Shown: one piece after another, positions 10,029 through 43,654 of the stretch
How the letters are laid out: every line of letters begins with the position of its first letter
Position numbering within the stretch: the stretch's first letter is position 1
Assembly: GCA_017984315.1 (NCBI GenBank)
Contig: JAGNZR010000006.1
Location: 1 to 57,482, forward strand
Reading direction: 5' to 3'
DNA from: Fusobacteriaceae bacterium
GTDB lineage: Bacteria; Fusobacteriota; Fusobacteriia; Fusobacteriales; Fusobacteriaceae
Length of the DNA: 57,482 bases
Notes under the pieces: model-generated
The model's database searches: none
The model's input: only the letters and a program-made list of their open reading frames with translations
Told to the model about the DNA's origin: nothing
Program-made: the position numbers and the translations under genes

Positions 10029-10057
10029 TTGACATTAATTTTTTTTTCTGTTAACAT
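10029..10057 (+). promoter_or_regulatory. Promoter of the argG leader transcript
   Basis: Consensus -35 TTGACA (10029-10034), 17-base spacer, -10 TAACAT (10052-10057). The expected transcript start near 10064 gives a leader of about 320 bases before argG. Confidence 0.75.
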
Positions 10058-10091
10058 GATTTCAATAATAAAATATAAGGGAGGTCCTACA

Positions 10092-10127
10092 GTGACTACA
10101 ATAAATTTTTTAAGGAGAAGCAGGTAA
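10092..10127 (+). CDS. Arginine-rich leader peptide of the argGH operon (MTTINFLRRSR)
   Basis: An 11-codon ORF starting with GTG, with GGGAGG (10079-10084) 7 bases upstream. It ends Leu-Arg-Arg-Ser-Arg-stop using AGG, AGA, AGC, AGG. It is too short to have a function as a protein and lies between a consensus promoter and a terminator placed just before argG, the layout of a ribosome-sensed attenuator. A near copy (MTKKFFLRSR) precedes the amino-acid permease gene at 33312-33344, which argues strongly against chance. Role is inferred. Confidence 0.75.
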   Translation: MTTINFLRRSR

Positions 10128-10317
10128 AGATTTTAATATAAATGTTCAAATTGACATTTATATAATTTTTATTTGCAAAATATCTTAATAGATATTTTTT
10201 CTTAAAATATTTGGTTACTGTTAGACCTCTTTTTTTTATATAATTTTATATTCAACTATTAATGATGGAGTACCTCCATTGTTCTTAGGATATTTTATTA
10301 TATTCAGGAAAAGTCTA

Positions 10318-10351
10318 AACACAGTAATACAAATATTACTGTGTTTTTTTT
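10318..10351 (+). terminator. Attenuator terminator upstream of argG
   Basis: A perfect 12-bp stem (AACACAGTAATA, loop CAAA) followed by eight T, ending 36 bases before the argG ATG. It lies within the operon leader rather than after a gene, and its stem sequence recurs at 33037-33064. Confidence 0.9.
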
Positions 10352-10387
10352 ATATAACAAACTAAACAATTAAAAAGGAGTAAAATT

Positions 10388-11605
10388 ATGGAAATTATAA
10401 AAGAAAAAGTTGTTTTAGCATATTCTGGAGGTTTAGATACATCTGTTATTATTCCTTGGCTTAAAGAGAACTATAACGAAATAGAAGTTATAGCTGTGGC
10501 TGTAGACGTTGGGCAAAAAGAGAATTTCAAAGAAGTTGAAGAAAAAGCATATAAAATTGGAGCTTCTAAATTTTACCTTGTAGATAAGAAAAAATCATTT
10601 GTAGAAGATTATATTTTCCCAACATTAAAAGCAGGAGCAAAATATGAAAATAAATATCTACTTGGAACTTCTACAGCAAGACCATCAATAGGGGAAGCAT
10701 TAGTAGAAGTTGCACATAAAGAAAATGCTAAATACATTGCACATGGTGCAACAGGAAAAGGAAACGACCAAGTTAGATTTGAATTAGCTATAAAAGCTCT
10801 AGATCCTTCAATTAAAATTATAGCTCCTTGGAGAATTTGGGATATAAAGTCAAGAGAGGAGGAGATTGCATATTTAGAATCAAAAGGGATTGCACTACCT
10901 TTTGATAAAAAATCACCTTACAGCAGAGATGAAAATCTTTTCCATGTAAGCCATGAGGGGTTTGATTTAGAGAAACCAAGCAACGAACCTAATTTTGAAA
11001 ATGTTCTTCAAATAGTTACACCTTTAGAAAAGACACCTGATCAAGGTGAGTACGTAACAATTGAATTCGAAAAAGGGATTCCTACAAAATTAAATGGAGT
11101 AGCTATGGATGGTGTTACACTTATTAATGAACTTAACTTAATTGGTGGAAAACACGGAGTTGGTATTTTAGACATTGTTGAAAACAGATTAGTAGGTTTA
11201 AAATCTCGTGGAGTATATGAGACACCTGGTGGAACAATACTATACTTTGCACATGAAGAGTTAGAGCACTTATGTCTAGATAAAGAGACTCTTCATTCTA
11301 AGCAAAATCTTTCAAATGAATTTGCTAAATTAGTTTACAATGGACAATGGTTTACAACAATTAGAAAAGCATTATCGGCATACGTAGACGTTACACAAGA
11401 GTATGTAACTGGTGAAGTAAAAATAAAACTATACAAAGGAAATATGGTATTAGCTGGAACAAAATCTGAATATTCTCTATACTCAGAAGAGTATTCTACA
11501 TTCGAAAAAGATTCAGTTTATAATCAACATGACGCTGAAGGATTCATCAATTTATTTAGGCTTTCTATAAAAATAGAATCTCTTCTAAGAAACAGTAAAA
11601 AATAA
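10388..11605 (+). CDS. argG: Argininosuccinate synthase
   Basis: A 405-residue protein with the ATP-binding N-terminal motif [11 protein letters not shown] and the family segments [15 protein letters not shown] and [14 protein letters not shown]. It condenses citrulline and aspartate with ATP cleavage to argininosuccinate in the cytoplasm. The ATG has AAAAGGAG 7 bases upstream. argH follows after 32 bases and a basic-amino-acid binding lipoprotein after that, so the three form an operon controlled by the leader at 10.06-10.35 kb. No earlier arginine genes (argF, carAB) are in the window, so citrulline may come from elsewhere or from uptake. Confidence 0.97.
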
Positions 11606-31577: not shown

Positions 31578-32309
31578 GTGATTTAACACTTTATTTAAGA
31601 AATCTTGCGTACGGTAATGTTTAGGATTAGAAAACAGATTTTCTGGTGTATCATCTTCTAATATAAAACCATGATCCATAAATAATACTCTAGTTGCTAC
31701 ATTTCTTGCAAAACTCATTTCATGAGTTACAATAATCATAGTCATTCCATCTTTAGCTAATTTTTTCATAACTTCCAAAACTTCATTTACCATCTCAGGA
31801 TCAAGAGCAGATGTAGGTTCGTCAAATAACATAAAATCAGGTTCCATAGCTAATGCTCTTGCTATTGCCACCCTTTGCTTTTGTCCTCCTGATAATTTGT
31901 TGGGATATACATCAGCTTTACTTTCCAGTCCAACTTTTTTTAAAAGTTCCAATGAGAATTTTTTTATCTCTTCAGGGTTACATTTTTTTGATTTTACAGG
32001 AGAGAGCATTAAATTCTCTAAAACTGTTTTATGTGGAAATAGATTAAAATTTTGGAATACCATCCCTATTTTTTTTCTAACCTCATTGATATCAGTTTCA
32101 GGGGAATTAATATCTTTCCCCATAAAATAGATGCTTCCACTAGTTGCTTCTTCTAATCTATTTATACATCTTAAAAAAGTAGATTTTCCACTTCCTGAAG
32201 GGCCTATTACAGCTACTACTTCCCCTTTTTCAACATTTATATTGATTTTTTTTAGTACTTCTAAATTTCCAAAATTTTTCTTTAAATTCTCTATTTTAAT
32301 CATTTTCAC
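31575..32309 (-). CDS. Polar amino-acid ABC transporter ATP-binding protein
   Basis: A 244-residue HisP/GlnQ-type ATPase: Walker [10 protein letters not shown], the amino-acid-transporter segment [13 protein letters not shown], signature [16 protein letters not shown], Walker [15 protein letters not shown]. It starts with GTG at 32309 (AGGGAG five bases upstream) or ATG at 32303, and overlaps the permease gene by about 14 bases. With the permease it lacks a linked binding protein; the likely partner is the lipoprotein encoded with argGH at 13.1 kb. Confidence 0.93.
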
Positions 32310-33006
32310 TCATTCTCCCTTCTATTTTTCTCATAAATTTAGTGAAAACAGACGTCAGTATTAAATATATTACACCCACAGCTAATAGTGGCTCAAAAGC
32401 TCTATAAGTCTGACTTGTAATTATATTAGCAGAACGCAATAAATCAATCCCACCGATAAATCCTACAATTGATGTTTCTTTTAACAATGTAATAAATTCA
32501 CTAACTAACGCTGGTAATATTTTTTTTACAGCTTGAGGTAAAATAACTTCTTTCATAGTTAAAGGGTAACTCATTCCTAGTGAACGTGCTGCCTCAAACT
32601 GTCCTTTATCCAATCCTTGAATCCCCGCTCTTATTATTTCAGCAACATATGCTGCAGAGTTAAGTCCAAATGCTATACTTGCAATTACTAAAATCGGTGT
32701 ATTTCTTAAAGCTCCTACAAAGACTACATTAGCTAAAATCATAAGTTGCACAATTGCAGGTGTTCCTCTAATTACATCAATATACACTAAAGCAAACCAA
32801 TCCAACGGGTTAAAATTTTTATATTTTTCAATATGCTTCAAAGGATAAAAATGAGATAATCTCATAATTGATAACCCTGTTCCGATTACTACTCCTAATA
32901 AAGTTGATAATAATGTTACATTAACTGAAAAAATTAAACCTTTTACAATATACATGTATCTAGTTCCATCAATAAATACAGTTTTTAAAATTTCTAAATA
33001 TTCCAT
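32296..33006 (-). CDS. Polar amino-acid ABC transporter permease (HisM/ArtQ type)
   Basis: A 236-residue permease with about five helices and the HisMQ-family EAA loop [22 protein letters not shown]; the segment [14 protein letters not shown] is also typical. The open frame reaches a TTG at 33018, but GAGGTG lies just before the ATG at 33006. One permease gene implies a homodimer. A 410-base leader with its own promoter, an Arg-containing leader peptide and a terminator precedes it, mirroring the argG leader, so the substrate is probably arginine (inference). Confidence 0.93.
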
Positions 33007-33028
33007 AATACACCTCAATATAAATTTT

Positions 33029-33064
33029 ATAAAAAAAACACAGTAATATCTAAATTACTGTGTT
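33029..33064 (-). terminator. Attenuator terminator upstream of the amino-acid permease gene
   Basis: On the minus strand AACACAGTAAT pairs perfectly (11 bp) with ATTACTGTGTT, followed by eight T. It lies 23 bases before the permease ATG, inside the leader. The stem sequence is the same as in the argG attenuator (10318-10351); only the loop differs. Confidence 0.9.
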
Positions 33065-33311
33065 AACTTATTTTCATAGCAAACTCAAATTATATTATAA
33101 AAATATCTTTTATTTTATAATTTTAACATTAGCCATTATAAATAGACTAATATTAAATAAAAAAAATAATATTTTTAAAAATATAAAAGAATTAATAGAA
33201 ATAATACAAATTCTGCTATTTTTATAAATAAGATACAGTAACCAGACATTTTCAATAAGGACAAAATAAAAAACAATAAACATCGCTTAAAGTTTTTTAA
33301 AGGCTATTAAA

Positions 33312-33344
33312 TTACCTACTCCTTAAAAAAAATTTTTTAGTCAC
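33312..33344 (-). CDS. Arginine-containing leader peptide of the amino-acid permease operon (MTKKFFLRSR)
   Basis: A 10-codon ORF starting with GTG, with GGAGGG (33350-33355) five bases upstream, ending Leu-Arg-Ser-Arg-stop (AGG, AGT, AGG, TAA). It resembles the argG leader ORF both in peptide (MT....FLR..SR) and in DNA (GTGACTA at the start, TTTTTTAAGGAG and AGGTAA at the end). Confidence 0.75.
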   Translation of the reverse strand: MTKKFFLRSR

Positions 33345-33371
33345 TTGTACCCTCCACTTTGTTTTTTTATT

Positions 33372-33400
33372 ATAATAGCACAGTTAAAAAAAATTGTCAA
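33372..33400 (-). promoter_or_regulatory. Promoter of the amino-acid permease leader
   Basis: On the minus strand TTGACA (33395-33400), 17-base spacer, TATTAT (33372-33377). A consensus promoter 28 bases upstream of the leader-peptide start. Confidence 0.78.
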
Positions 33401-33429: not shown

Positions 33430-34485
33430 TTAATTTATATACTCTTTATTAACGTATTCTGATGTCATTAATTTTAAAAGAGCACTATAATTTAATCTAA
33501 ATTTTACTATATCACCTATTTTATAATCAGTTCCTGTCACATTTAAAATGAAATGATCACTACTGCACCCCAGACACTGAATGTTTTCATCTAAAGGGAT
33601 CATTCCAGAAAATTCTGTATCCTGCCTTCCAATAGATAAAATAGCTCTTTTTATTTTACCTAAATCCTCAAAAACAGGTTTATTTCCAAAAGCATCAAAT
33701 CCAATCTCCCCCTCAGGAATGGAGTTTTTTACTTTTGACTCTATTATTTCTGCTTCGACAGTAAATACATCATTATGAGTTCCTTTAATCCTTTCCCCAT
33801 AAGCTGATTCTGTCCCAAATACGATAGTTTCACCCATTCTTAAATTATTAATTCCTATAGGCAGTTTACCATTTTGGACTAAATAATAGCTACTTGAGTT
33901 CCCTCCAGATATCATCTCTAACTCTATGCCTGTTTCCATTTTTATTTTCTCATTTATCTCTATAAGTTTTCCAAGATTTTTTGGAGTAGGAATTACACCA
34001 CCATAGCAAGTAAGGTTTACCCCTATGCCAAAAAGTTTTATATTTTTTAATTTCTGAACTTCTTTTACAACATCTAATATATCCTCTTCTAAAATCCCTT
34101 CTCTCAAATCTCCTAACTCAACCATGAGAACAATTTTGTGTATTTTATTCTCTTCAGCTGCATATTTATTTAGCAGTTTTATAACTTCTAGCTCGCTATT
34201 AAGGCTTATATCAGAATATTTAATAACATCTTTTGCAGCAGATTTACTTGGTATTCTTATTAAAATTTTTTCAATATTAATATGTGAAACTCTTTTTAAA
34301 TTTTCTAACCTAGCATCACCTAAATATTTTACTCCACTTTCAACAAGAGCTTCTGCTATTTCTGGTCTAGCACAAAAAGATTTCATTATTGCCGTCACAG
34401 ATATCCCTTTTTCTTCACATTGATCTACAACTATTTTACAGTTCGCTTTAATCTTATTTAAATCTATCTTAATTTTTGGATACAT
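33430..34485 (-). CDS. orr: Ornithine racemase
   Basis: A 351-residue PLP enzyme of the alanine racemase N-terminal barrel type without the usual alanine racemase pattern; the predicted PLP lysine is Lys35 in VTAIMKSF. It matches the Orr family of clostridial ornithine oxidation, which converts L-ornithine to the D-ornithine used by the aminomutase. It is the last gene of the operon, 10 bases after the mutL-like gene. Substrate is inferred from family and operon. Confidence 0.88.
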   Translation of the reverse strand: MYPKIKIDLNKIKANCKIVVDQCEEKGISVTAIMKSFCARPEIAEALVESGVKYLGDARLENLKRVSHINIEKILIRIPSKSAAKDVIKYSDISLNSELEVIKLLNKYAAEENKIHKIVLMVELGDLREGILEEDILDVVKEVQKLKNIKLFGIGVNLTCYGGVIPTPKNLGKLIEINEKIKMETGIELEMISGGNSSSYYLVQNGKLPIGINNLRMGETIVFGTESAYGERIKGTHNDVFTVEAEIIESKVKNSIPEGEIGFDAFGNKPVFEDLGKIKRAILSIGRQDTEFSGMIPLDENIQCLGCSSDHFILNVTGTDYKIGDIVKFRLNYSALLKLMTSEYVNKEYIN

Positions 34486-34495
34486 TTATACCCTC

Positions 34496-35872
34496 CTATA
34501 AAGCTATGCCATTAAAACTCTCTTCTAAAAGGTTTAGTGCTATCTCTTTATCATTTAAAGATAACACACCGATAGAAGCCATTATATAGTGATTGTCAAT
34601 TAGTATTTTAGCACTATCTGTAGGCAGTAATTTTTCACCATGATTACTTTTTAAAATAGATTCTAAGATCTCTATTCTTTTTGGTAATCTAGTCAATGCT
34701 CCTCCAGTTCCCACTATATATCGAACCATTGTTAAATCTTTCCCCATTGCTATTCTCTTACTTCCACTGGCAAAAGTTATTTTTACATTTCCAGCATGAC
34801 GATATAAAGAAGTTGTTACAGCCTCTTTTGTTATGTATTCAGCTACTCTCAATTGAAGTTCAGTTTTAGGTATAGGTGGTAGCTCCTCCAAAACCCTTGA
34901 CGCCTCCTCAACTGAAATATCTAAAGCTTTTGCCATTTTTTCAATTCCTAATAATTCTATAACATTTTTTTTACTAACATAGCACCCTAAATCCCCTTCA
35001 ACAGTTCTTTTAGAGATTGGTTCAGGTTCTTGCAATATTAAATTAATAGCTTCACTACCTTCTGTTACAGAGCTTACATCTGTTGTAGCTCCCCCAACAT
35101 CAATAGTTACTATATCACCTATTTTTTCATATAATACTTTTGTAGCCTCCATAACTGCACCAGGAGTTGGCATTATATGCCCTTTTACCATTTTTCTTAT
35201 GCTATTCATCCCTGGAGCATGAGTTATATTCTCTTCAAATATTTTTTGAATTTTTTTTCTTACAGGTTCTACATTAAGTTCGTCTATTTTAGGATATACA
35301 TTGTCAGTGACATCTATAAGATGACCTTTTCCAGCTTCCTCAAAAATAAATTTAACCTCATCTTGACATGCAATATTTCCAGCATATAAAACTGGGACTT
35401 CAATTGGCAGTTCTGCTATTTTTTCAGCATTATATAAGGCAGTCTCTTTCTCCCCAAAATCAACTCCTCCAGCAATTAATATAATATTAGGCTTTACATC
35501 TACAATTTTTTTTAAATCAAATCTTGAAATTTTACCAGCAGTTATAAAATGAAGATTAGCACCTGCACCTAAAGCCGCTTCCCTTGCTGCTTTTACTGTC
35601 ATATCATAAACAAGACCATGAACAGTCATTTTCAGTCCTCCAGCAGCAGAGCTTGTTGCAAGCATCTCTTTATAGTTTATCTCATCGCATTTCAATACAC
35701 TTTTTAAGTTTAAAATTGCATTTTCCAACCCTATATTAACATCACCTTCAAGGACAGTTGTAGCTGCCTGTCCTTGACCGATGAATCTTAGTTTTTTTTC
35801 ACTACATTTTACAAATGCATTAACTACTGTTGTTGTACTACCAATTTCTGCAACTAAATATTCTAATTCCAT
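34496..35872 (-). CDS. GlmL/MutL-like ASKHA-fold protein of the ornithine operon
   Basis: A 458-residue protein with the actin/hexokinase-type phosphate loops: AEIGSTTTVVNAF at the N terminus and DVGGATTDVSSV near residue 255. It belongs to the GlmL/MutL family found beside B12-dependent carbon-skeleton mutases and aminomutases. Its start overlaps the end of oraE by 10 bases. A role in keeping the OraSE mutase active (cofactor exchange or repair) is plausible by analogy with reactivating ATPases, but I know of no direct proof. Confidence 0.8.
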   Translation of the reverse strand: MELEYLVAEIGSTTTVVNAFVKCSEKKLRFIGQGQAATTVLEGDVNIGLENAILNLKSVLKCDEINYKEMLATSSAAGGLKMTVHGLVYDMTVKAAREAALGAGANLHFITAGKISRFDLKKIVDVKPNIILIAGGVDFGEKETALYNAEKIAELPIEVPVLYAGNIACQDEVKFIFEEAGKGHLIDVTDNVYPKIDELNVEPVRKKIQKIFEENITHAPGMNSIRKMVKGHIMPTPGAVMEATKVLYEKIGDIVTIDVGGATTDVSSVTEGSEAINLILQEPEPISKRTVEGDLGCYVSKKNVIELLGIEKMAKALDISVEEASRVLEELPPIPKTELQLRVAEYITKEAVTTSLYRHAGNVKITFASGSKRIAMGKDLTMVRYIVGTGGALTRLPKRIEILESILKSNHGEKLLPTDSAKILIDNHYIMASIGVLSLNDKEIALNLLEESFNGIAL

Positions 35873-38088
35873 TTTCCACTTTCTATTAATTCTTTCTTTT
35901 TAGTTACAAAGAAGTTTGCTACATGCACTCCTTTATCATTTTTACCAAACCCTTGATCCATCCCTTGTTTTCTAGCAATTTCAGGAGTAACTTGTGTTCC
36001 ACCAGCGCAGATTATTACTTTATCTCTAATCCCTTTTTCCACTGCAAGTTCATGTAATTTTTTCATATTTTTATAATGAATATCATCATGAGATATAATT
36101 GTAGAAACCAATATTACATCTGCATTCATTTCAATTGCAGAATCTATCATTTTTTCGCATGATACAGATGTTCCTAAATACTCAACTTCCATTCCAAACT
36201 TTTCAATTCCACCGTGCTTAATATCTATAACTTCACGTAGTCCTACTGAGTGCTCATCTTGTCCTATTGTTCCAGCTACAATTTTAAACGGATGCTTATC
36301 TGCAAAATCTCTGATCTCATCATCACTTAAAACTTTAACTTCTTCAGGAATTACTAATTTGCTCTTATCTACAACATGCTTTACTTTACCTTTTATTTGA
36401 ACTCTAGTTCCTTCACTTGGATGCATAACCTCTAAATGAATAACCTCAGGTGATTCTAAATTCATAGATTTTGCAAACTCTATTGCTGCAACTTCCGCAG
36501 TTCTAGAATCTGTAGGTAAGAACATTTCAACAGATACTACTCCGTCTCCAGCCCATTCAACCTCTGGCTTTAACATATTACCTTTTCTAAACTCTGCAGT
36601 TTCAGCCATTCTTACATTTACATTATCATTTTCATCTAATTCATCTATAAATACAATTTTCTCAGGATTTTCAAATGTTGATCCACCAATTAATACCGCT
36701 GGAGTTTCAAGCTCATCTGAAGAGTATTGTTTTATATTATTATTTCCAAAGTGAGCTGTAACTGGTGCAAAATATTTTTCATCTCTTTCAAATACGAAAC
36801 CAGCTCCTACTCCACCATCTTTCTTTCTTCCAATTCCATCTCCATTTCTTTCAGGATAGCATGCAGAGTCAACAAAAAATCCATTCTCTACTGCATCAAA
36901 ATACCCAGTCTCTGCTATCTCTTCTAAAAATAAAACAGCTCTCTCTTTTAACTCTCTAACTTTATCTGTTAGCCAGCCATCTTTTTTGATTTCAAGCATC
37001 TCTAAAAGTCCATCCATTCCAGCCATAGATTGCTTAGCTGTATCACATGCTTCAATGTTATAAACATGCCAAGGAACGTTTCTTCCTTCATCAGGAGTTA
37101 TTGTTGATTGGATATCCGCTCTAGTCAGTTTAGAGATAAGCATGTTCATTACGTGAGTAACTGTAGCTTCTCTTGAAGATGAAGTTATATATTTTGTATT
37201 CATTTGTGCTCTCATTCTGTACTCAGGAAAAAGCTCTCTTAAAGCAATTGCATAAGGAAGATCTAACTTCATGCAAGGAGCTGGAGCTGATGTAGGTGGT
37301 ACTGTAGATAAACAGATTAAATCCTTTGGTATCCCTACTTTATTAGAAAATATAGAGTTCAGTCCATGTTGCACCATAAGCTCAGGCATTACTTTCCAAG
37401 CCTCTCTAGCAGTTGCATTAGCATTGTGTGCTCCATCTATTTGAGCCATTTTTGCCCAAGCCATAACTCTTTTAGATTCAGCAGCATCTACAAACGAACG
37501 AACCATATTTACGTTTCTATATAATACGTTATACTGAGGATCTTGGTGAGCTCCATTTACTCCCTCTTCAGCAAACATTACAGCAACGTCAGGCCCTGCT
37601 ACTCCAGAAACGTACGAGTGATAATTTATCTCTCTTCCTACTTCCTCCTCTATCATGTCACAAGCTTTTCTTTGTGCTCTTACTTGCTTTCTAGTAATAG
37701 GTACTCCTCCACTTCCTTGAGGTGTTCCTTCTATTAACCCATCAAAGTGAGATTGCCCAGCAGTTCTGATAACCATTATGTGGTCTGCACCGTGCCAAGC
37801 AGCCATTCTCATTCTTCTAATATCATCTTCAAATCTTCCAGAAGCAATCTCAGTTGTAATTGTGCTTAAAGGTTGTGGATCTATATTTCCAAAATATTTT
37901 GCAGCAGGCATAGCGATATATTTCTCTAAAGATTCTCCACATTCGCTAAAATTGAAAGCCCCTAACTTTCCACCATTAGCTAATGGTGTTCTCCATGTCC
38001 ATCCTCTTCTTCTTGGTCTATACTTATCTAAATCTTGTAAGATAAAATCTATATCTAATTTTTCATTAGGCTGTATTTTATTATTCAT
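35863..38088 (-). CDS. oraE: D-ornithine 4,5-aminomutase, E subunit
   Basis: About 741 residues. The C-terminal B12-binding domain shows the DxHxxG base-off motif as DEHSVG (about residue 620), and the rest is the PLP-carrying TIM-barrel of OraE. With OraS it moves the terminal amino group of D-ornithine to C4, giving 2,4-diaminopentanoate, using adenosylcobalamin and PLP. The open frame extends to 38115, but the ATG at 38088 overlaps the oraS stop as TAATG behind GGAGAGGTG, so translation is coupled. Confidence 0.95.
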   Translation of the reverse strand: MNNKIQPNEKLDIDFILQDLDKYRPRRRGWTWRTPLANGGKLGAFNFSECGESLEKYIAMPAAKYFGNIDPQPLSTITTEIASGRFEDDIRRMRMAAWHGADHIMVIRTAGQSHFDGLIEGTPQGSGGVPITRKQVRAQRKACDMIEEEVGREINYHSYVSGVAGPDVAVMFAEEGVNGAHQDPQYNVLYRNVNMVRSFVDAAESKRVMAWAKMAQIDGAHNANATAREAWKVMPELMVQHGLNSIFSNKVGIPKDLICLSTVPPTSAPAPCMKLDLPYAIALRELFPEYRMRAQMNTKYITSSSREATVTHVMNMLISKLTRADIQSTITPDEGRNVPWHVYNIEACDTAKQSMAGMDGLLEMLEIKKDGWLTDKVRELKERAVLFLEEIAETGYFDAVENGFFVDSACYPERNGDGIGRKKDGGVGAGFVFERDEKYFAPVTAHFGNNNIKQYSSDELETPAVLIGGSTFENPEKIVFIDELDENDNVNVRMAETAEFRKGNMLKPEVEWAGDGVVSVEMFLPTDSRTAEVAAIEFAKSMNLESPEVIHLEVMHPSEGTRVQIKGKVKHVVDKSKLVIPEEVKVLSDDEIRDFADKHPFKIVAGTIGQDEHSVGLREVIDIKHGGIEKFGMEVEYLGTSVSCEKMIDSAIEMNADVILVSTIISHDDIHYKNMKKLHELAVEKGIRDKVIICAGGTQVTPEIARKQGMDQGFGKNDKGVHVANFFVTKKKELIESGKWN

Positions 38089-38462
38089 TACTTCACCTCT
38101 CCAAAATATTTGCAAGCTTCATCCCAGAAGTTCCCTTTTAAAAGTTCTAATCCACTCTCTCTGATAGAAAGGTTTTTAACTTTAGAAACTGCATAAACTA
38201 CATGACCTGCTCCGTATTTAATAAGTCCTCTGTTTATTGCTTCCTCTACTAAAGGTTTTGCTTCTAATGAAGAGAACCCCATTCTTAGTAATACAGATCT
38301 CTCTATTGAAGGTGTAGTATGTGTTTTTGCTATATCTATCATAGGATCAACAATTTTCTCTGCCAATTCCCAAAATTTATTTTTTAACTCCTCATCTGTT
38401 AAGTTCTTTAAATGACTTCTTCTAGTTTCGAAGTCGTCCCCTCTTTTTAAATACCCTTTCAT
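38088..38462 (-). CDS. oraS: D-ornithine 4,5-aminomutase, S subunit
   Basis: A 124-residue small subunit with the family segments MKGYLKRGDDFETRR at the N terminus and GAGHVVYAVSKVKN. It stabilises OraE and is needed for activity. It starts 2 bases after ortB ends, and its stop overlaps the oraE start codon. Confidence 0.93.
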   Translation of the reverse strand: MKGYLKRGDDFETRRSHLKNLTDEELKNKFWELAEKIVDPMIDIAKTHTTPSIERSVLLRMGFSSLEAKPLVEEAINRGLIKYGAGHVVYAVSKVKNLSIRESGLELLKGNFWDEACKYFGEVK

Positions 38463-38464
38463 AA

Positions 38465-39865
38465 TTACCTCGCTTCTAATATTTTTTTTACGAAATCTTT
38501 AGTACTTTTTGTCTCTATTGCTAAAAACTCAATATCATTATCTGATATAGATTTTTCTGCTTTATCACAATGATTTTTGATCAATGAAGTTTTTTGTCTA
38601 TTAAGATCTAAATCAACAGCATTAATTTCCCCAATATTCATAGGTAAAATTATATTTTTCCCTGGAATCTCTTCAGAAGTTACCCCAAATTTAACTTCTA
38701 CACCGTTTTCTCTTGCAAAAGACAGTTGAGATTGAATATGCTTACCAGCACCAGTGTATTCACTTTCTTGAACTATCAATACTGCATCTTCAGGAAGAGT
38801 TTTTGCTATTGAACATGCTGCTGCTAGTGATGTATTCCCTGCAGGGCCTCTTTCTAACCCTTCAACTTGAGCAAGAAGCTCTGTCATATAGAAAACTTCC
38901 CCTTGATTTACAGTAACATATCTATCTAAATATCTAAGTGGTCTAGCTGCTGATCTTGGTACATCTGATCTGTCAGGCCATGTAGCAAATGGTATCCCAA
39001 ATCCTGTATGCCCTGTTGTGAAAGATTTTCTATTAAAATCTTTATCTGAAGCCATATGAAGTCCTTTTAAATTCACGCTAGCACCAACTATTTGAGTATC
39101 AGTTGCCCCAGCTTTAATAAGTCCTCTTGCTGTTCCAGTTATATTTCCACCACCAGCATTTGTACAAACTACTACATCAGGAAATTTCCCTGTAATATCT
39201 TTTGTTTGCTGTGCTAATTCATAACCTAAAGTTTCCACTCCAGCAATTCCAAATGGTGTGTATAATGAAGCATTGAAGTACCCTGTCTCTTCTAATATTT
39301 TTAAGAAAGTATAGAAAAGTTCAGGTCCTACTGATAATTGTATTACTTCTGCACCATAAGCTTCACAATGTCTTGCTTTTTCTATAATTTCAGGCTGTCC
39401 AACACCTCTGCTGTCATAGCACTCTTGAACTATTATACACTTTAATCCATGCATAGCAGCTTGAGATGCAACTGCAGCTCCGTAGTTTCCACTTGTAGCA
39501 GCTACTACTCCTTTATAACCTAATCTTTTTGCATGATAAACAGCTGTAGCAGCTCTTCTAGCTTTAAAAGATCCTGAAGGATTGCAAGCTTCATCTTTAA
39601 CAAATATTCTTGCCCCTTTTCCTGGTTCACTATATTTTCTAACAAGTTTAGTTATATTTTTTAATTCAATTAAAGGTGTTCTACCTACTGCACCTGCTTT
39701 TTGAATCTCCATTATCTCTTCTAATGTATATCCAACTTCACTCATCATTTTTTCATAATCAAATCCAATACCATCATCTTCAAAATCGGCAAAGTCAATA
39801 CCTAAAGATTTTTTCATTATTTCATTACTTCTCGACATTACTGCTGCATAACTCATATCTTTCAT
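38465..39865 (-). CDS. ortB: 2-amino-4-ketopentanoate thiolase, beta subunit
   Basis: A 466-residue fold-type II PLP enzyme related to threonine synthase and cysteine synthase. The predicted PLP lysine is in NPSGSFKARRA (about residue 123) and a phosphate-binding GGGNITGTA loop lies near residue 240. With OrtA it cleaves 2-amino-4-ketopentanoate with CoA to acetyl-CoA and alanine (D-alanine in the described enzyme). It starts 2 bases after ortA behind GGAGG. Confidence 0.93.
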   Translation of the reverse strand: MKDMSYAAVMSRSNEIMKKSLGIDFADFEDDGIGFDYEKMMSEVGYTLEEIMEIQKAGAVGRTPLIELKNITKLVRKYSEPGKGARIFVKDEACNPSGSFKARRAATAVYHAKRLGYKGVVAATSGNYGAAVASQAAMHGLKCIIVQECYDSRGVGQPEIIEKARHCEAYGAEVIQLSVGPELFYTFLKILEETGYFNASLYTPFGIAGVETLGYELAQQTKDITGKFPDVVVCTNAGGGNITGTARGLIKAGATDTQIVGASVNLKGLHMASDKDFNRKSFTTGHTGFGIPFATWPDRSDVPRSAARPLRYLDRYVTVNQGEVFYMTELLAQVEGLERGPAGNTSLAAACSIAKTLPEDAVLIVQESEYTGAGKHIQSQLSFARENGVEVKFGVTSEEIPGKNIILPMNIGEINAVDLDLNRQKTSLIKNHCDKAEKSISDNDIEFLAIETKSTKDFVKKILEAR

Positions 39866-39867
39866 AA

Positions 39868-40170
39868 TTATTTTACCTCCGAAAGTTCTTTTCTTGCGTT
39901 CATCCCAATCACTGCAAGCTCTGGAACATAACTTCCAAAAGATATTGTATACGTAGGATTAATCTCTTCTAAAATTCCACGCTCAACTCTTCCTGTTTTT
40001 GTAACAACTTCTACAACTTCACCAATTTTGGCATCATTTTGTAAAAAACCTTTTACCCACATTTTTAAATCTGATTTTTTTGTGTCTTCAGGTAAATTTG
40101 TACTTCTTTCTGAAGATTGTAAAACAGTTTCATATATTTTTACCCAGTCACCTTTTTTTGCATTTTTCAT
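39868..40170 (-). CDS. ortA: 2-amino-4-ketopentanoate thiolase, alpha subunit
   Basis: A 100-residue partner of OrtB with the family pattern GDWVKIYETVLQSSERS at the start and the GEVVEVVTKTGRVERG beta segment. Such small subunits are found only with OrtB in ornithine oxidation clusters. It lies 43 bases after ord. Confidence 0.92.
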   Translation of the reverse strand: MKNAKKGDWVKIYETVLQSSERSTNLPEDTKKSDLKMWVKGFLQNDAKIGEVVEVVTKTGRVERGILEEINPTYTISFGSYVPELAVIGMNARKELSEVK

Positions 40171-40213
40171 ATTATAAAAACCTCCAAATTTGTTCCTTAA
40201 ATTACTATTTTTC

Positions 40214-41266
40214 TTAGTCTCTTTCTATTAGTTTTCTCATATCACCCATTATTGCTCTTGGAACTGGAAGATCTAACATTGTTTTTAATCCTGGCTTAGA
40301 ATTTATAATATGAGGGATCATATTTACACTCATAGCAATAGTTCCAATTCCACCGTCAACTTCTGGAGTTATAGCCATACTGATTTCTGGAGACCCTTTA
40401 AGGATGATATAGTCACCTGTAGCTGTTCCTCCTAATTGAGGTTCAACTTGCTGTGGATGGTACATTTCAATTTTTACTTCCCCATTTACAGTTCCAAACC
40501 CTTCCATAGAGCACCCTGCAACATTTCCTGCTGCAACTTCAACATACTTAGTTTTTCTAAATACATCTGATACTATTGGAGCTTGTTGCTGCTTAATTGG
40601 ATTCTCTACTTCCCACCCAATAGCATCAGCTATCATGTTAATTGATTCAGCGAACCCAACATGACCTGCTAACTCTCCAGTTTCAGTTTTATGGATAAAA
40701 TCTTCTTTTGTTAATCCCACTCCCTGCTCTTCCATAACAGCATGTCCAAATGGAGAAAGACTGTTTACTCTTCTTGCTGTTACATGATCAACTCTTTGCA
40801 TAGCACCTGTAAGTGTTACAACTAAAAGATCCATCATTAATCCTGGATTAATTCCTGTACCTAATATAGAAACTCCGTTTTCCTTTGCTATTCTGTCTAA
40901 TTCTGCTGCTAACTCAGGATTTTGAGCTTTTGGATATGACATCTCCTCAGCTGTAGATACCACATTTATCCCCTTTTTTAATACATGAGCTAATCTAGGA
41001 AAAGCCGCTTTTGTAAAAGAGTCTGTTGCGCAAAGGCAAACATCGCATTTTTTACCATTTAAAACATCATCTATCTCATCTTTAATTATAATCTCTTTTC
41101 TTCCATTTTGAGGAATTCCTAATACTTCATACATGCTTTTTCCAACTCTTGATGGAGATTTGTCACAAACACCTATAATTTCCACACCTTGCTTCTCTAA
41201 AAGCATAGCTGCCATTCCACTTCCCATTGCTCCAAATCCCCAAATTGCTACTTTAATATTTTCCAT
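40214..41266 (-). CDS. ord: 2,4-diaminopentanoate dehydrogenase
   Basis: A 350-residue NAD(P)-dependent oxidoreductase with the N-terminal Rossmann fingerprint IWGFGAMGSGMA. It resembles dihydrodipicolinate reductase-like amine dehydrogenases of the Ord family, which oxidatively deaminate 2,4-diaminopentanoate to 2-amino-4-ketopentanoate and yield ammonia and reduced cofactor. It is the second gene of the operon, 71 bases after alr. Confidence 0.93.
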   Translation of the reverse strand: MENIKVAIWGFGAMGSGMAAMLLEKQGVEIIGVCDKSPSRVGKSMYEVLGIPQNGRKEIIIKDEIDDVLNGKKCDVCLCATDSFTKAAFPRLAHVLKKGINVVSTAEEMSYPKAQNPELAAELDRIAKENGVSILGTGINPGLMMDLLVVTLTGAMQRVDHVTARRVNSLSPFGHAVMEEQGVGLTKEDFIHKTETGELAGHVGFAESINMIADAIGWEVENPIKQQQAPIVSDVFRKTKYVEVAAGNVAGCSMEGFGTVNGEVKIEMYHPQQVEPQLGGTATGDYIILKGSPEISMAITPEVDGGIGTIAMSVNMIPHIINSKPGLKTMLDLPVPRAIMGDMRKLIERD

Positions 41267-41337
41267 TTCTTCCCCCTATAATTTTTTTAAATTTTAATTA
41301 TATATACCATTACTTTTACAGTAATTTAATAATGAAT

Positions 41338-42423
41338 TTATATGTACACTCTATCTACTCTACCTGATATTTGAACTAAATATTCATAAGGAGATATCTC
41401 TGCATTTTTTAATTGATTCATTACATGTTTACCTAAAACTTCAACTTCCATTCCTAACTTTACCTTCTCTTTTATACAGTCTGGAATCTCAATCATTGTA
41501 ACATCCATACATACTTTACCTAAAACTTTACATGGCACACCATCTATATGCATTATCCCTTTATTTGTAAATCTTCTCTGGTATCCATCTGCATATCCTA
41601 TTGAAACAGTTGCAACCATTCCACCTTTTTTTACAAACCCTTCTCTTCCATAAGATATATAAGAATCCTCTTCTACAACTTTTAGATGCGCTATTCTAGC
41701 TTTTAGTTTTGTAATAGTTTCCAATCCATTATGAAGATCAGTATACCCATAAAGCATAATTCCAGCTCTTGCTAAATTACCTCCGCAAAGAGAATCGTGG
41801 TCTATTATCCCTGCACTATTTTGAATATGTCTATATTTCAACTCTTTTATATCCTCATACTCTTTAAATTTATTTATCTGTTGGACAGTATATAACTCTT
41901 GTGTGTACTCATCAGAAGATGAAAAATGAGAGTAGATTCCAATTATCTCTGTTTTTTTGAATTTTTCTATCATATCAAGCACATCTTGTCTCTTTATGTT
42001 TGTAAATCCTATCCTTCCCATTCCAGTATCTATTTTTATATGCACTTTTGGATTACAAAAGTTATTTTTTTCAATGTACTCTAAATCTTCATACCTTGTT
42101 ATTGACAGTTGCAGATTATTATTGAATGCTTCCTCATATTCATCATAATTAAGTGCTCCAAAAACTAAAATTTCACCTTGTATTCCATTTTTTCTAAGTT
42201 TCACACCCTCTTTAAGGCATGCAACTCCAAAGATTTTAACGCCTAATTTTGTAAGTTCTTTGGCTATTGCCACATCTCCGCATCCATATCCATCAGCTTT
42301 AACAACGCCTAAAATCTCTTTCCCTTTCACTAACCTTTTTGCTATTTCATAGTTATTTTTTAATTTTGCAAAATCTATTTCTAACCACGCTCTTTTCACA
42401 CTTACACCTCTAATTTCAATCAA
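41338..42423 (-). CDS. alr: Alanine racemase at the head of the ornithine operon
   Basis: A 361-residue two-domain alanine racemase: PLP lysine in GVVKADGYG (about residue 43), the HIKIDTGMGRIGF segment, and the second catalytic tyrosine in IGYADGYQR. It interconverts L- and D-alanine. The frame begins at 42423, and ATG M1 gives a slightly long N terminus (MIEIRGVSVKRAWLEID); a GTG at 42402 (VKRAWLEID) is also possible. Location at the start of an operon whose thiolase releases D-alanine suggests a catabolic racemase, possibly in addition to a cell-wall one. Confidence 0.92.
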   Translation of the reverse strand: MIEIRGVSVKRAWLEIDFAKLKNNYEIAKRLVKGKEILGVVKADGYGCGDVAIAKELTKLGVKIFGVACLKEGVKLRKNGIQGEILVFGALNYDEYEEAFNNNLQLSITRYEDLEYIEKNNFCNPKVHIKIDTGMGRIGFTNIKRQDVLDMIEKFKKTEIIGIYSHFSSSDEYTQELYTVQQINKFKEYEDIKELKYRHIQNSAGIIDHDSLCGGNLARAGIMLYGYTDLHNGLETITKLKARIAHLKVVEEDSYISYGREGFVKKGGMVATVSIGYADGYQRRFTNKGIMHIDGVPCKVLGKVCMDVTMIEIPDCIKEKVKLGMEVEVLGKHVMNQLKNAEISPYEYLVQISGRVDRVYI

Positions 42424-42463
42424 AAATAAAATCTTTCAAATTTTCATTTATCTTGTATATATT

Positions 42464-42490
42464 TTATTACATTTGTATTATATGTAATAA
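42464..42490. repeat. Inverted repeat at the start of the ornithine-operon transcript
   Basis: TTATTACA (42464-42471) and TGTAATAA (42483-42490), perfect 8-bp arms with an 11-base centre, just downstream of the predicted transcription start. It may be an operator or a 5' mRNA hairpin. Confidence 0.4.
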
Positions 42491-42501
42491 TCATTAACAA
42501 C

Positions 42502-42530
42502 AATTTATCTTTTTTCTAAATTTTTGTCAA
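42502..42530 (-). promoter_or_regulatory. Promoter of the ornithine oxidation operon
   Basis: On the minus strand TTGACA (42525-42530), 17-base spacer, TAAATT (42502-42507), about 80 bases upstream of alr. Confidence 0.7.
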
Positions 42531-42629
42531 CACCTTGCCATTAAAAAGTGTTTTTTTTTTATACTATATATTCTATTTTCAAGTTTATTATTCTTTTTTT
42601 GATTTTTTTTACCATTCTTAAACATTTAA

Positions 42630-42672
42630 AATAAAATGGAGTTATCTTTGAAATCTGATAACTCCATTTTAT
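42630..42672 (-). terminator. Terminator after the CtlX-like gene
   Basis: AAAATGGAGTTATC (42633-42646) pairs perfectly with 42657-42670; T-rich DNA follows on the minus strand. It starts 7 bases after the gene stop. Confidence 0.85.
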
Positions 42673-42676
42673 CAAT

Positions 42677-43600
42677 TTAAAATAATTCAGCTACCATACA
42701 CCTGGCCGATCCTCCACCTAATTTTTCAATGGTAGAAATATCAGCATGTATAATTTTAGAATTTTTTTCCATTATCTCCTTTTGCTCAGTTGTAAAAGCA
42801 TTATATGCAGAAGTAGACATTATTGTGAATATATCCTCATTTTTATTAGAGACCTGTATTATATTTCCAGCAAAATTTGCCATCTGCTGTTCAGTTATAT
42901 CTATTATCTCTTTATTGCATTTTTTTAATTCAGAAACAACATTATCTTTTTCGTTTTTATCATCTATGGAATCTAAACAGATAACTGCAAAATCAGTTCC
43001 TATAGCCATCATTACATTTGTGTGGTATATAGGCAACCTTTTCCCTTCAAAAGTTTGAAAAGAATTAAAAGCTACTGGAGAAAATTCATAATTTTTGCAA
43101 AAATCCATAAACAGATCTTTGTCACACCTTTTCGATAGTGATGCAAAGGCCACTTTTTTAACTCTGTCAAATATCAGGCATCCAGTCCCTTCTAAAAATT
43201 TATCCTCATTTTCGTACACGCTGTAATTAGTCATATTAATTTGTTTATCTGAAATATTATCAATTAAAACTCCTAAATGTTTAAATCTCTCAAGCCTTCT
43301 ATTTTCAGCAAACATAGGTGAAAGAAACAACTCTCCCCCTGGTTCAGTGATAAACCAGTTATTGGGAAAAATACTGTCTGGAGTGTGTGGAGTTTTTGTA
43401 TCTTTAACTACCACTACTTCAACTCCATTTTCTCTAATTTTAGATACAAGATCATTAAACTCTTTTAATGCCTTTTCTTGGACAATTTGGGCATCCACTT
43501 TTTCATTGACCTGAAAAAAATTATTAACTGCAGTCTCCTCATTAAATGCAAAACAAGTCGGCTCCACCATTAAAATTTTAGACGTAGTTTGTGTTCTCAC
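42677..43600 (-). CDS. CtlX-like citrulline hydrolase of the arginine deiminase/amidinotransferase superfamily
   Basis: About 307 residues. The pattern matches the guanidine-modifying superfamily: SIFPNNWF near the N-terminal third, the histidine in IYHTNVMMA, NFAGNIIQ, and the C-terminal catalytic cysteine in GGGSARCMVAEL. It is closest to CtlX proteins, which hydrolyse citrulline to ornithine, ammonia and carbon dioxide; arginine deiminase- or dimethylarginine hydrolase-like activity cannot be excluded. The frame opens at 43651, but the GTG at 43600 (VRTQTTSKILM) has AAGGAGATGA 8 bases upstream and fits the family start. The ornithine oxidation operon lies next to it. Confidence 0.8.
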   Translation of the reverse strand: MRTQTTSKILMVEPTCFAFNEETAVNNFFQVNEKVDAQIVQEKALKEFNDLVSKIRENGVEVVVVKDTKTPHTPDSIFPNNWFITEPGGELFLSPMFAENRRLERFKHLGVLIDNISDKQINMTNYSVYENEDKFLEGTGCLIFDRVKKVAFASLSKRCDKDLFMDFCKNYEFSPVAFNSFQTFEGKRLPIYHTNVMMAIGTDFAVICLDSIDDKNEKDNVVSELKKCNKEIIDITEQQMANFAGNIIQVSNKNEDIFTIMSTSAYNAFTTEQKEIMEKNSKIIHADISTIEKLGGGSARCMVAELF

Positions 43601-43654
43601 TTTTAATTTCATCTCCTTTATTTTTGTCTTAACTGATATATGTTTTATCATTCA

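What the first reader, a model, noticed from the sequence alone, without database searches (positions are those of the whole stretch)
33007..33400. Second, related arginine leader before the amino-acid ABC permease/ATPase genes
On the minus strand, a consensus promoter, a 10-codon ORF MTKKFFLRSR, a GGTTACTGT segment and a terminator with the same 11-nt stem as the argG one appear in the same order. Shared blocks are GTGACTA, TTTTTTAAGGAG, AGGTAA, GGTTACTGT and AACACAGTAAT...ATTACTGTGTT, separated by unrelated AT-rich DNA of differing length. Independent copies in front of two arginine-related units are strong evidence that the element is real and functional.
Basis: seen in the sequence. Interest (0 to 1): 0.82.

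Follow-up and report, generated by a model that had tools for sequence, protein, structure and literature searches.

The report
Arginine-sensing leader peptide attenuator
Before the arginine-uptake genes, and again before the last two arginine-synthesis genes, this fusobacterium carries a tiny decoy gene rich in arginine codons; its slow translation when arginine is scarce is predicted to keep RNA polymerase from stopping early, and almost every relative in the family has the same device while lacking the usual arginine repressor.

Summary
On the minus strand at 33400-33007 lie, in order, a TTGACA-17-TATTAT promoter, SD, the GTG leader ORF MTKKFFLRSR*, GGTTACTGT and an 11-bp terminator, before an amino-acid ABC permease/ATPase pair. 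The argG-argH-SBP operon (10029-10352) repeats the series. In this genome the terminator block and the GTGACTA...AAGGAG block occur only at these two places. The parts form a ribosome-mediated attenuator. Region 2 (GGTTACTGT) pairs either with the leader's own SD/start/Arg-codon segment or with the terminator 5' arm. Masking the leader, as a ribosome waiting at the first Arg codon would, drops the computed terminator probability at the permease leader from 0.97 to 0.17; shuffled spacers do not. Relatives confirm it: 45 of 53 permease upstream regions in 12 of 13 Fusobacteriaceae genera hold an SD-preceded mini-ORF with at least 3 Arg codons (shuffles 2, reverse strand 1), and most separate SBP-argG operons have one too. 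Leader Arg codons are 72% AGG against 12% in window genes. No ArgR was found above cut-off in 61 Fusobacteriaceae genomes. The 2:3 antiterminator is clear in this genus but not proven family-wide. The mechanism is known in kind; I found no report of it for arginine operons or Fusobacteriota.

The parts
33372..33400 (-). promoter TTGACA-N17-TATTAT of the permease leader
   Evidence: 11 of 12 consensus matches with TG before the -10
33350..33355 (-). Shine-Dalgarno GGAGGG of the leader ORF
   Evidence: sequence
33312..33344 (-). leader ORF GTG..TAA, MTKKFFLRSR; Arg codons 8 and 10 are AGG
   Evidence: sequence; same-genus G002 has MTKKLLLRSRVFTLIRL
33337..33352 (-). region 1: SD/start segment GGGTACAAGTGACTAA; extended 1:2 helix continues into AAGGA (Arg codon 8), pairing with TCCTTAT 33261-33255
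   Evidence: 1:2 duplex -13.0 kcal/mol in the joint test, p=0.01; -29.6 kcal/mol extended, p=0.015
33235..33243 (-). region 2: GGTTACTGT, pairs with region 1 or region 3
33054..33064 (-). region 3: terminator 5' arm AACACAGTAAT, also antiterminator partner of region 2
33029..33047 (-). region 4: terminator 3' arm ATTACTGTGTT and T tract
   Evidence: P(terminator) 0.97 full, 0.17 with leader masked
32296..33006 (-). amino-acid ABC transporter permease (Art/Gln/cystine-like; arginine assigned by context)
   Evidence: PF00528, TIGR01726
31575..32309 (-). amino-acid ABC transporter ATPase
   Evidence: PF00005, GlnQ/ArtP-like
10029..10057 (+). promoter of the argG leader
   Evidence: 10 of 12 matches
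10092..10127 (+). argG leader ORF GTG..TAA, MTTINFLRRSR (AGG AGA AGC AGG TAA)
10079..10100 (+). region 1 of the argG leader, GGGAGGTCCTACAGTGACTACA
   Evidence: 1:2 -13.2 kcal/mol; -38.4 extended, p=0.005
10213..10229 (+). region 2 of the argG leader, GGTTACTGTTAGACCTC
   Evidence: 2:3 p=0.02
10317..10352 (+). argG leader terminator (regions 3 and 4) and T tract
10388..11605 (+). argG
   Evidence: PF00764/PF20979
11638..13056 (+). argH
   Evidence: TIGR00838
13085..13822 (+). solute-binding protein of the basic amino-acid transporter (SBP)
   Evidence: PF00497, best NCBIfam TIGR01096 below cut-off

Best explanation
A ribosome-mediated transcription attenuator that reads the supply of charged arginine tRNA. 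When arginine is plentiful the leader peptide is finished, its SD/start/Arg-codon segment (region 1) pairs back on to region 2, region 3 is left for region 4, and the terminator stops RNA polymerase before the permease/ATPase (or argG-argH-SBP) genes. When arginine is short a ribosome waits at AGG codon 8, covers the Arg codons and the start-proximal part of region 1, region 2 is freed and pairs with region 3, the terminator cannot form and the genes are transcribed. Shown by computation: the anatomy, the two exclusive foldings in this genus, the arginine-codon enrichment and family-wide conservation. Inferred: tRNA charging as the signal, ribosome position, and readthrough in the cell.
For: Anatomy. 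Exclusive foldings beat dinucleotide-shuffled spacers for all three leaders of the genus where the blocks were recognised (joint 1:2 and 2:3, p=0.01 each); the G002 terminator base has A-T to G-C and A-T to C-G changes with pairing kept, and its 1:2 and 2:3 pairs are kept. Ribosome masking: terminator probability 0.97 to 0.17 (window permease leader), 0.98 to 0.21 (G002), 0.95 to 0.80 (window argG), 0 of 30 shuffles as low. Conservation: Arg-rich SD-preceded mini-ORF in 45 of 53 permease upstream regions against a mean of 2.0 in shuffles, 1 on the reverse strand, 0 further upstream; also before nearly all SBP-argG operons examined in related genera. Peptides share Arg but little else. Arg 15.7% of leader codons against 3.2% in window genes; AGG 148 of 205 leader Arg codons against 57 of 493. 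1:2 helix across 17 genus/operon groups, Fisher p about 1e-9. No ArgR domain above cut-off in 61 family genomes or 96 order genomes.
Against: The 2:3 antiterminator alone is not significant across the family (Fisher p 0.18-0.35), and masking does not change the computed terminator in many relatives. The window argG switch is weak at equilibrium (0.95 to 0.80). G001 of the same genus has no leader before its permease and only one Arg codon in its SBP-argG leader. Leaders were picked as Arg-rich, which inflates the Arg percentage (not the AGG share). No expression data.
Confidence: 0.85

Rival explanations
1. Nascent-peptide arrest: the finished peptide ...LRSR, or free arginine bound in the ribosome tunnel, stalls the ribosome (like SpeFL for ornithine or the fungal arginine attenuator peptide) and switches the RNA.
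For: The two window peptides share F-L-R-(R)-S-R-stop and G002 has LLLRSR.
Against: Across genera only the Arg codons recur; length, C-terminus and other residues do not. Arrest by high arginine would, with this architecture, turn uptake and synthesis on when arginine is abundant, the wrong direction.
Confidence: 0.06
2. The terminator is constitutive or regulated by an RNA ligand (riboswitch) or a protein, and the mini-ORF is incidental.
For: In some relatives folding predicts little effect of ribosome masking; a structured element AAAGATT-stem-ATGAGCATA lies in 15 of 61 leaders.
Against: No Rfam family at gathering threshold or convincingly near it; that element is absent from the window leaders; Arg codon enrichment and SD are family-wide; no ArgR.
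Confidence: 0.06
3. The shared blocks are only ordinary promoter, ribosome-site and terminator sequences, alike by chance in AT-rich DNA.
For: AT-rich DNA gives frequent promoter-like matches (6 found, 4.3 expected).
Against: Terminator and leader-start blocks occur only at these two loci in the genome; orthologous operons in 12 genera carry Arg-rich leaders.
Confidence: 0.02

Closest known systems
Ribosome-mediated attenuators of amino-acid operons (trp, his, leu/ilv type; modelled in PMC1183508; Firmicutes his leader in PMC2965389)
   Same: short leader ORF with clustered control codons for the operon's own amino acid, 1:2 / 2:3 / 3:4 alternative pairing, intrinsic terminator before the first gene
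   Different: arginine as the sensed amino acid, Fusobacteriota as host, and region 1 reaches back over the leader's own SD and start codon so that the terminating fold also hides the leader ribosome site
speF orf34/SpeFL leader of Salmonella (PMC6386406)
   Same: leader ORF with consecutive rare Arg codons (AGG CGG) sensed by ribosome pausing at low arginine
   Different: controls ornithine decarboxylase through Rho, RBS sequestration and RNase G; conserved peptide HIRRT...HIMM (DUF2618), absent here; no intrinsic antitermination switch of this form
uORFC-8-2 cysS motif (PMC8632094)
   Same: computed leader-peptide attenuator found by comparative genomics outside the classical operons
   Different: cysteine codons, alphaproteobacterial cysS
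ArgR/AhrC repression
   Same: the usual way arginine genes respond to arginine
   Different: protein repressor; not found above cut-off in this family

Membership tests
Ribosome-mediated transcription attenuator (trp/his type) | translatable short leader ORF with SD between promoter and first gene | tested here: met
   conserved position in relatives
Ribosome-mediated transcription attenuator (trp/his type) | control codons for the amino acid handled by the operon, enriched over background | tested here: met
   Arg 15.7% vs 3.2%; AGG share 72% vs 12%; 45 of 53 regions vs 2.0 in shuffles
Ribosome-mediated transcription attenuator (trp/his type) | intrinsic terminator between leader ORF and structural gene | tested here: met
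   found for 59 of 61 leaders
Ribosome-mediated transcription attenuator (trp/his type) | leader-ORF segment pairs with a downstream region 2 | tested here: met
   p<=0.05 in 36-41 of 59 leaders, Fisher about 1e-9 to 4e-11 over 17 groups
Ribosome-mediated transcription attenuator (trp/his type) | region 2 can instead pair with the terminator 5' arm (antiterminator) | tested here: inconclusive
   met in this genus and some others (g12, g7 G008, g13 G052); family-wide Fisher p 0.18-0.35
Ribosome-mediated transcription attenuator (trp/his type) | readthrough rises when the amino acid or its charged tRNA falls | not testable with these tools
   needs expression data
T-box riboswitch | specifier loop and T-box antiterminator sequence | tested here: not met
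   no Rfam match in the whole window nor near threshold in the leader
SpeFL (DUF2618) ornithine/arginine leader | conserved HIRRT...HIMM peptide upstream of speF | tested here: not met
   leader peptides lack the motif and precede art/argG operons
ArgR regulon | ArgR protein in the genome | tested here: not met
   PF01316: 0 of 61 family genomes over the cut-off; PF02863: 0 of 96 order genomes; controls positive. Own genome only about 78% complete

The most novel reading that the evidence does not exclude
Fusobacteriaceae control arginine uptake and the last steps of arginine synthesis with a family-wide leader-peptide attenuator regulon in place of ArgR, using a self-sequestering design in which the leader's own ribosome site and start codon form the anti-antiterminator, so that leader translation initiation and stalling at AGG codons jointly set readthrough.
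Probability: 0.5. Interest if true: 0.65.

Novelty: new member of a known kind. Interest (0 to 1): 0.52.

Why it matters
Leader-peptide attenuation was first catalogued in Proteobacteria and Actinobacteria and later in Firmicutes (PMC2965389). This adds arginine as a sensed amino acid for arg operons and Fusobacteriota as a host phylum, and gives a testable answer to how a family without a detectable ArgR controls arginine genes. It also supplies about 60 natural leaders, predicts rare AGG codons as the sensor, and marks many unannotated mini-genes in fusobacterial genomes as regulators.

Tried and rejected
First idea that the argG leader is a recent copy present only in this species: rejected, because other genera have an Arg leader before SBP-argG; what remains is likely exchange between the two loci inside this genus. 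First joint test with 14-nt windows missed long 1:2 helices in other genera; supplemented by full-length duplex and masking tests. Terminator-sequence search in relatives found nothing, since the sequence is not conserved outside the genus even though the design is. Covariation in the g3 group: alignment 94% identical, uninformative. Rfam at low threshold: only a spurious microRNA model on the terminator hairpin. Leptotrichiaceae and other order members: no Arg leader seen directly upstream of argG, where argG mostly sits close behind other genes. Nine literature searches in the open-access library found no earlier description; most subscription journals are not covered.

Full report
OBSERVATION. 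The argG leader on the plus strand (10029-10352) has the same order with MTTINFLRRSR*. The terminator pattern occurs at these two places only in the own genome and nowhere in 99 relatives; the GTGACTA...AAGGAG pattern also occurs only at these two places in the own genome.

ANATOMY AND SWITCH. The shared blocks are the mutually complementary ones. GTGACTA (the leader start codon and next codons) pairs with region 2 GGTTACTGT, and region 2 also pairs with ACAGTAA in the terminator 5' arm. The 1:2 helix extends over the leader SD and the Arg codons (AAGGA with TCCTT in the permease leader). Requiring one segment to pair well with both partners gives p=0.01 against dinucleotide-shuffled spacers for each of the three leaders of the genus in which the blocks are recognisable: window permease, window argG, and the permease leader of G002. 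In G002 the terminator base differs by paired changes and all three helices are kept. If the leader up to 12 nt beyond the first Arg codon is masked, as by a waiting ribosome, the computed probability of the terminator falls from 0.97 to 0.17 (window permease), 0.98 to 0.21 (G002) and 0.95 to 0.80 (window argG), with none of 30 shuffled spacers as low. The argG effect is modest at equilibrium; co-transcriptional folding, where region 2 meets region 3 before region 4 exists, should favour the antiterminator more, but that is inference.

FAMILY-WIDE CONSERVATION. The permease was located in 55 of 61 Fusobacteriaceae genomes and its upstream DNA collected. Of 53 regions long enough, 45 have an SD-preceded mini-ORF with at least three Arg codons within 400 nt, against a mean of 2.0 in shuffles, 1 on the reverse strand and 0 in the stretch further upstream. 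The window's own leader, with two Arg codons, falls below that cut. Examples are MLRRFRVRNN.. in Fusobacterium gastrosuis, MLLRKDRNRV.. in a Cetobacterium MAG, MLFMTRQERNRKF, MKFVVRRRQFNIL and MLKLRRRRIRRSRT... In relatives the operon is leader-permease-ATPase-SBP, in one contig followed by argH, and where SBP-argG forms a separate operon it has its own Arg leader (MTMRRILRTQT.., MLKTTLLRNRK.., MLVTLNLRNRK.., MLLVVNIRSRR..). So both leaders of the window have counterparts elsewhere, and the operon split of the window (permease-ATPase here, argG-argH-SBP there) kept an attenuator on each half. G001 of the same genus is an exception: no permease leader, and one Arg codon in the SBP-argG leader. 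In genus g11 no Arg leader was found at either place.

SENSOR. Sixty-one leaders have 15.7% Arg codons against 3.2% in window ORFs (the first figure is inflated by selection), and AGG makes up 148 of 205 leader Arg codons against 57 of 493 in window genes, which selection on Arg content does not explain. The peptides agree in little but Arg, which favours codon reading over a specific arrest peptide. Elf and Ehrenberg (PMC1183508) show that the choice among synonymous control codons sets attenuator sensitivity; whether AGG is the more sensitive choice here depends on tRNA levels that are unknown.

STRUCTURE ACROSS GENERA. The 1:2 helix is significant in 36-41 of 59 leaders (Fisher about 1e-9 or below over 17 genus/operon groups). 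The 2:3 helix alone is not significant family-wide (Fisher p 0.18-0.35), although single leaders in other genera switch strongly (g12 G024 0.93 to 0.02, g7 G008 0.99 to 0.31, g13 G052 0.93 to 0.27). I therefore claim the switch for this genus, and Arg leader plus terminator plus self-sequestered leader for the family.

REGULATOR CONTEXT. ArgR domains are absent above cut-off from all 61 family genomes and 96 order genomes while control genomes ring. No Rfam family matches. The gene order around the permease leader is arginine/ornithine metabolism: ornithine racemase Orr directly upstream (33430-34485) and citrulline hydrolase CtlX at 42677-43651.

LITERATURE. Nine searches found no arginine-operon attenuator or fusobacterial leader peptide. 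The nearest precedent for Arg codons in a leader is Salmonella speF orf34 (PMC6386406), with a different target and mechanism. Naville and Gautheret (PMC2965389) state that leader-peptide systems had been known only in Proteobacteria and Actinobacteria before their Firmicutes case; they do not mention arginine or Fusobacteria.

VERDICT. A real, functional-looking arginine leader-peptide attenuator; a known kind of device with a specificity and host group not described in the literature I could search. Experiments are listed under next steps.

Noticed in passing
art leaders of genera g7 and g13 (e.g. L195, L181, L183, L185) and the SBP-argG leader in L005 (G001): A recurrent element AAAGATT-[variable stem]-ATGAGCATA lies between the leader ORF and the terminator in 15 of 61 leaders; the flanks are constant, while the stem's closing pairs alternate A-T/G-C with pairing kept. 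Not in the window, not in Rfam; function unknown.
   Followed up: partly
L203, L188, L189 (genus g13): The same element plus an Arg/His-containing mini-ORF (MKLRQRHIIII.., MLLRHERHGISNL) and an AGCCAATAG...CTATTGGCT terminator precede a PF03553 (NhaC-family) transporter that also weakly matches the arginine/ornithine antiporter model ArcD: probably a third attenuated transporter unit.
   Followed up: partly
window 33430-43651, minus strand: Ornithine degradation cluster upstream of the permease leader: ornithine racemase Orr (NF040742, 33430-34485) next to large genes that look like an ornithine aminomutase set, and citrulline hydrolase CtlX (NF046062) at 42677-43651.
   Followed up: partly
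L005 1-780 (G001, same genus): The SBP-argG leader peptide has only one Arg codon (MMTILNLRLHNKII..), and the permease of this genome has no leader and sits behind another gene: apparent decay or rewiring of the device in one species.
   Followed up: partly
all Fusobacteriales genomes sampled: No ArgR N- or C-terminal domain above cut-off in 61 and 96 genomes.
   Followed up: yes
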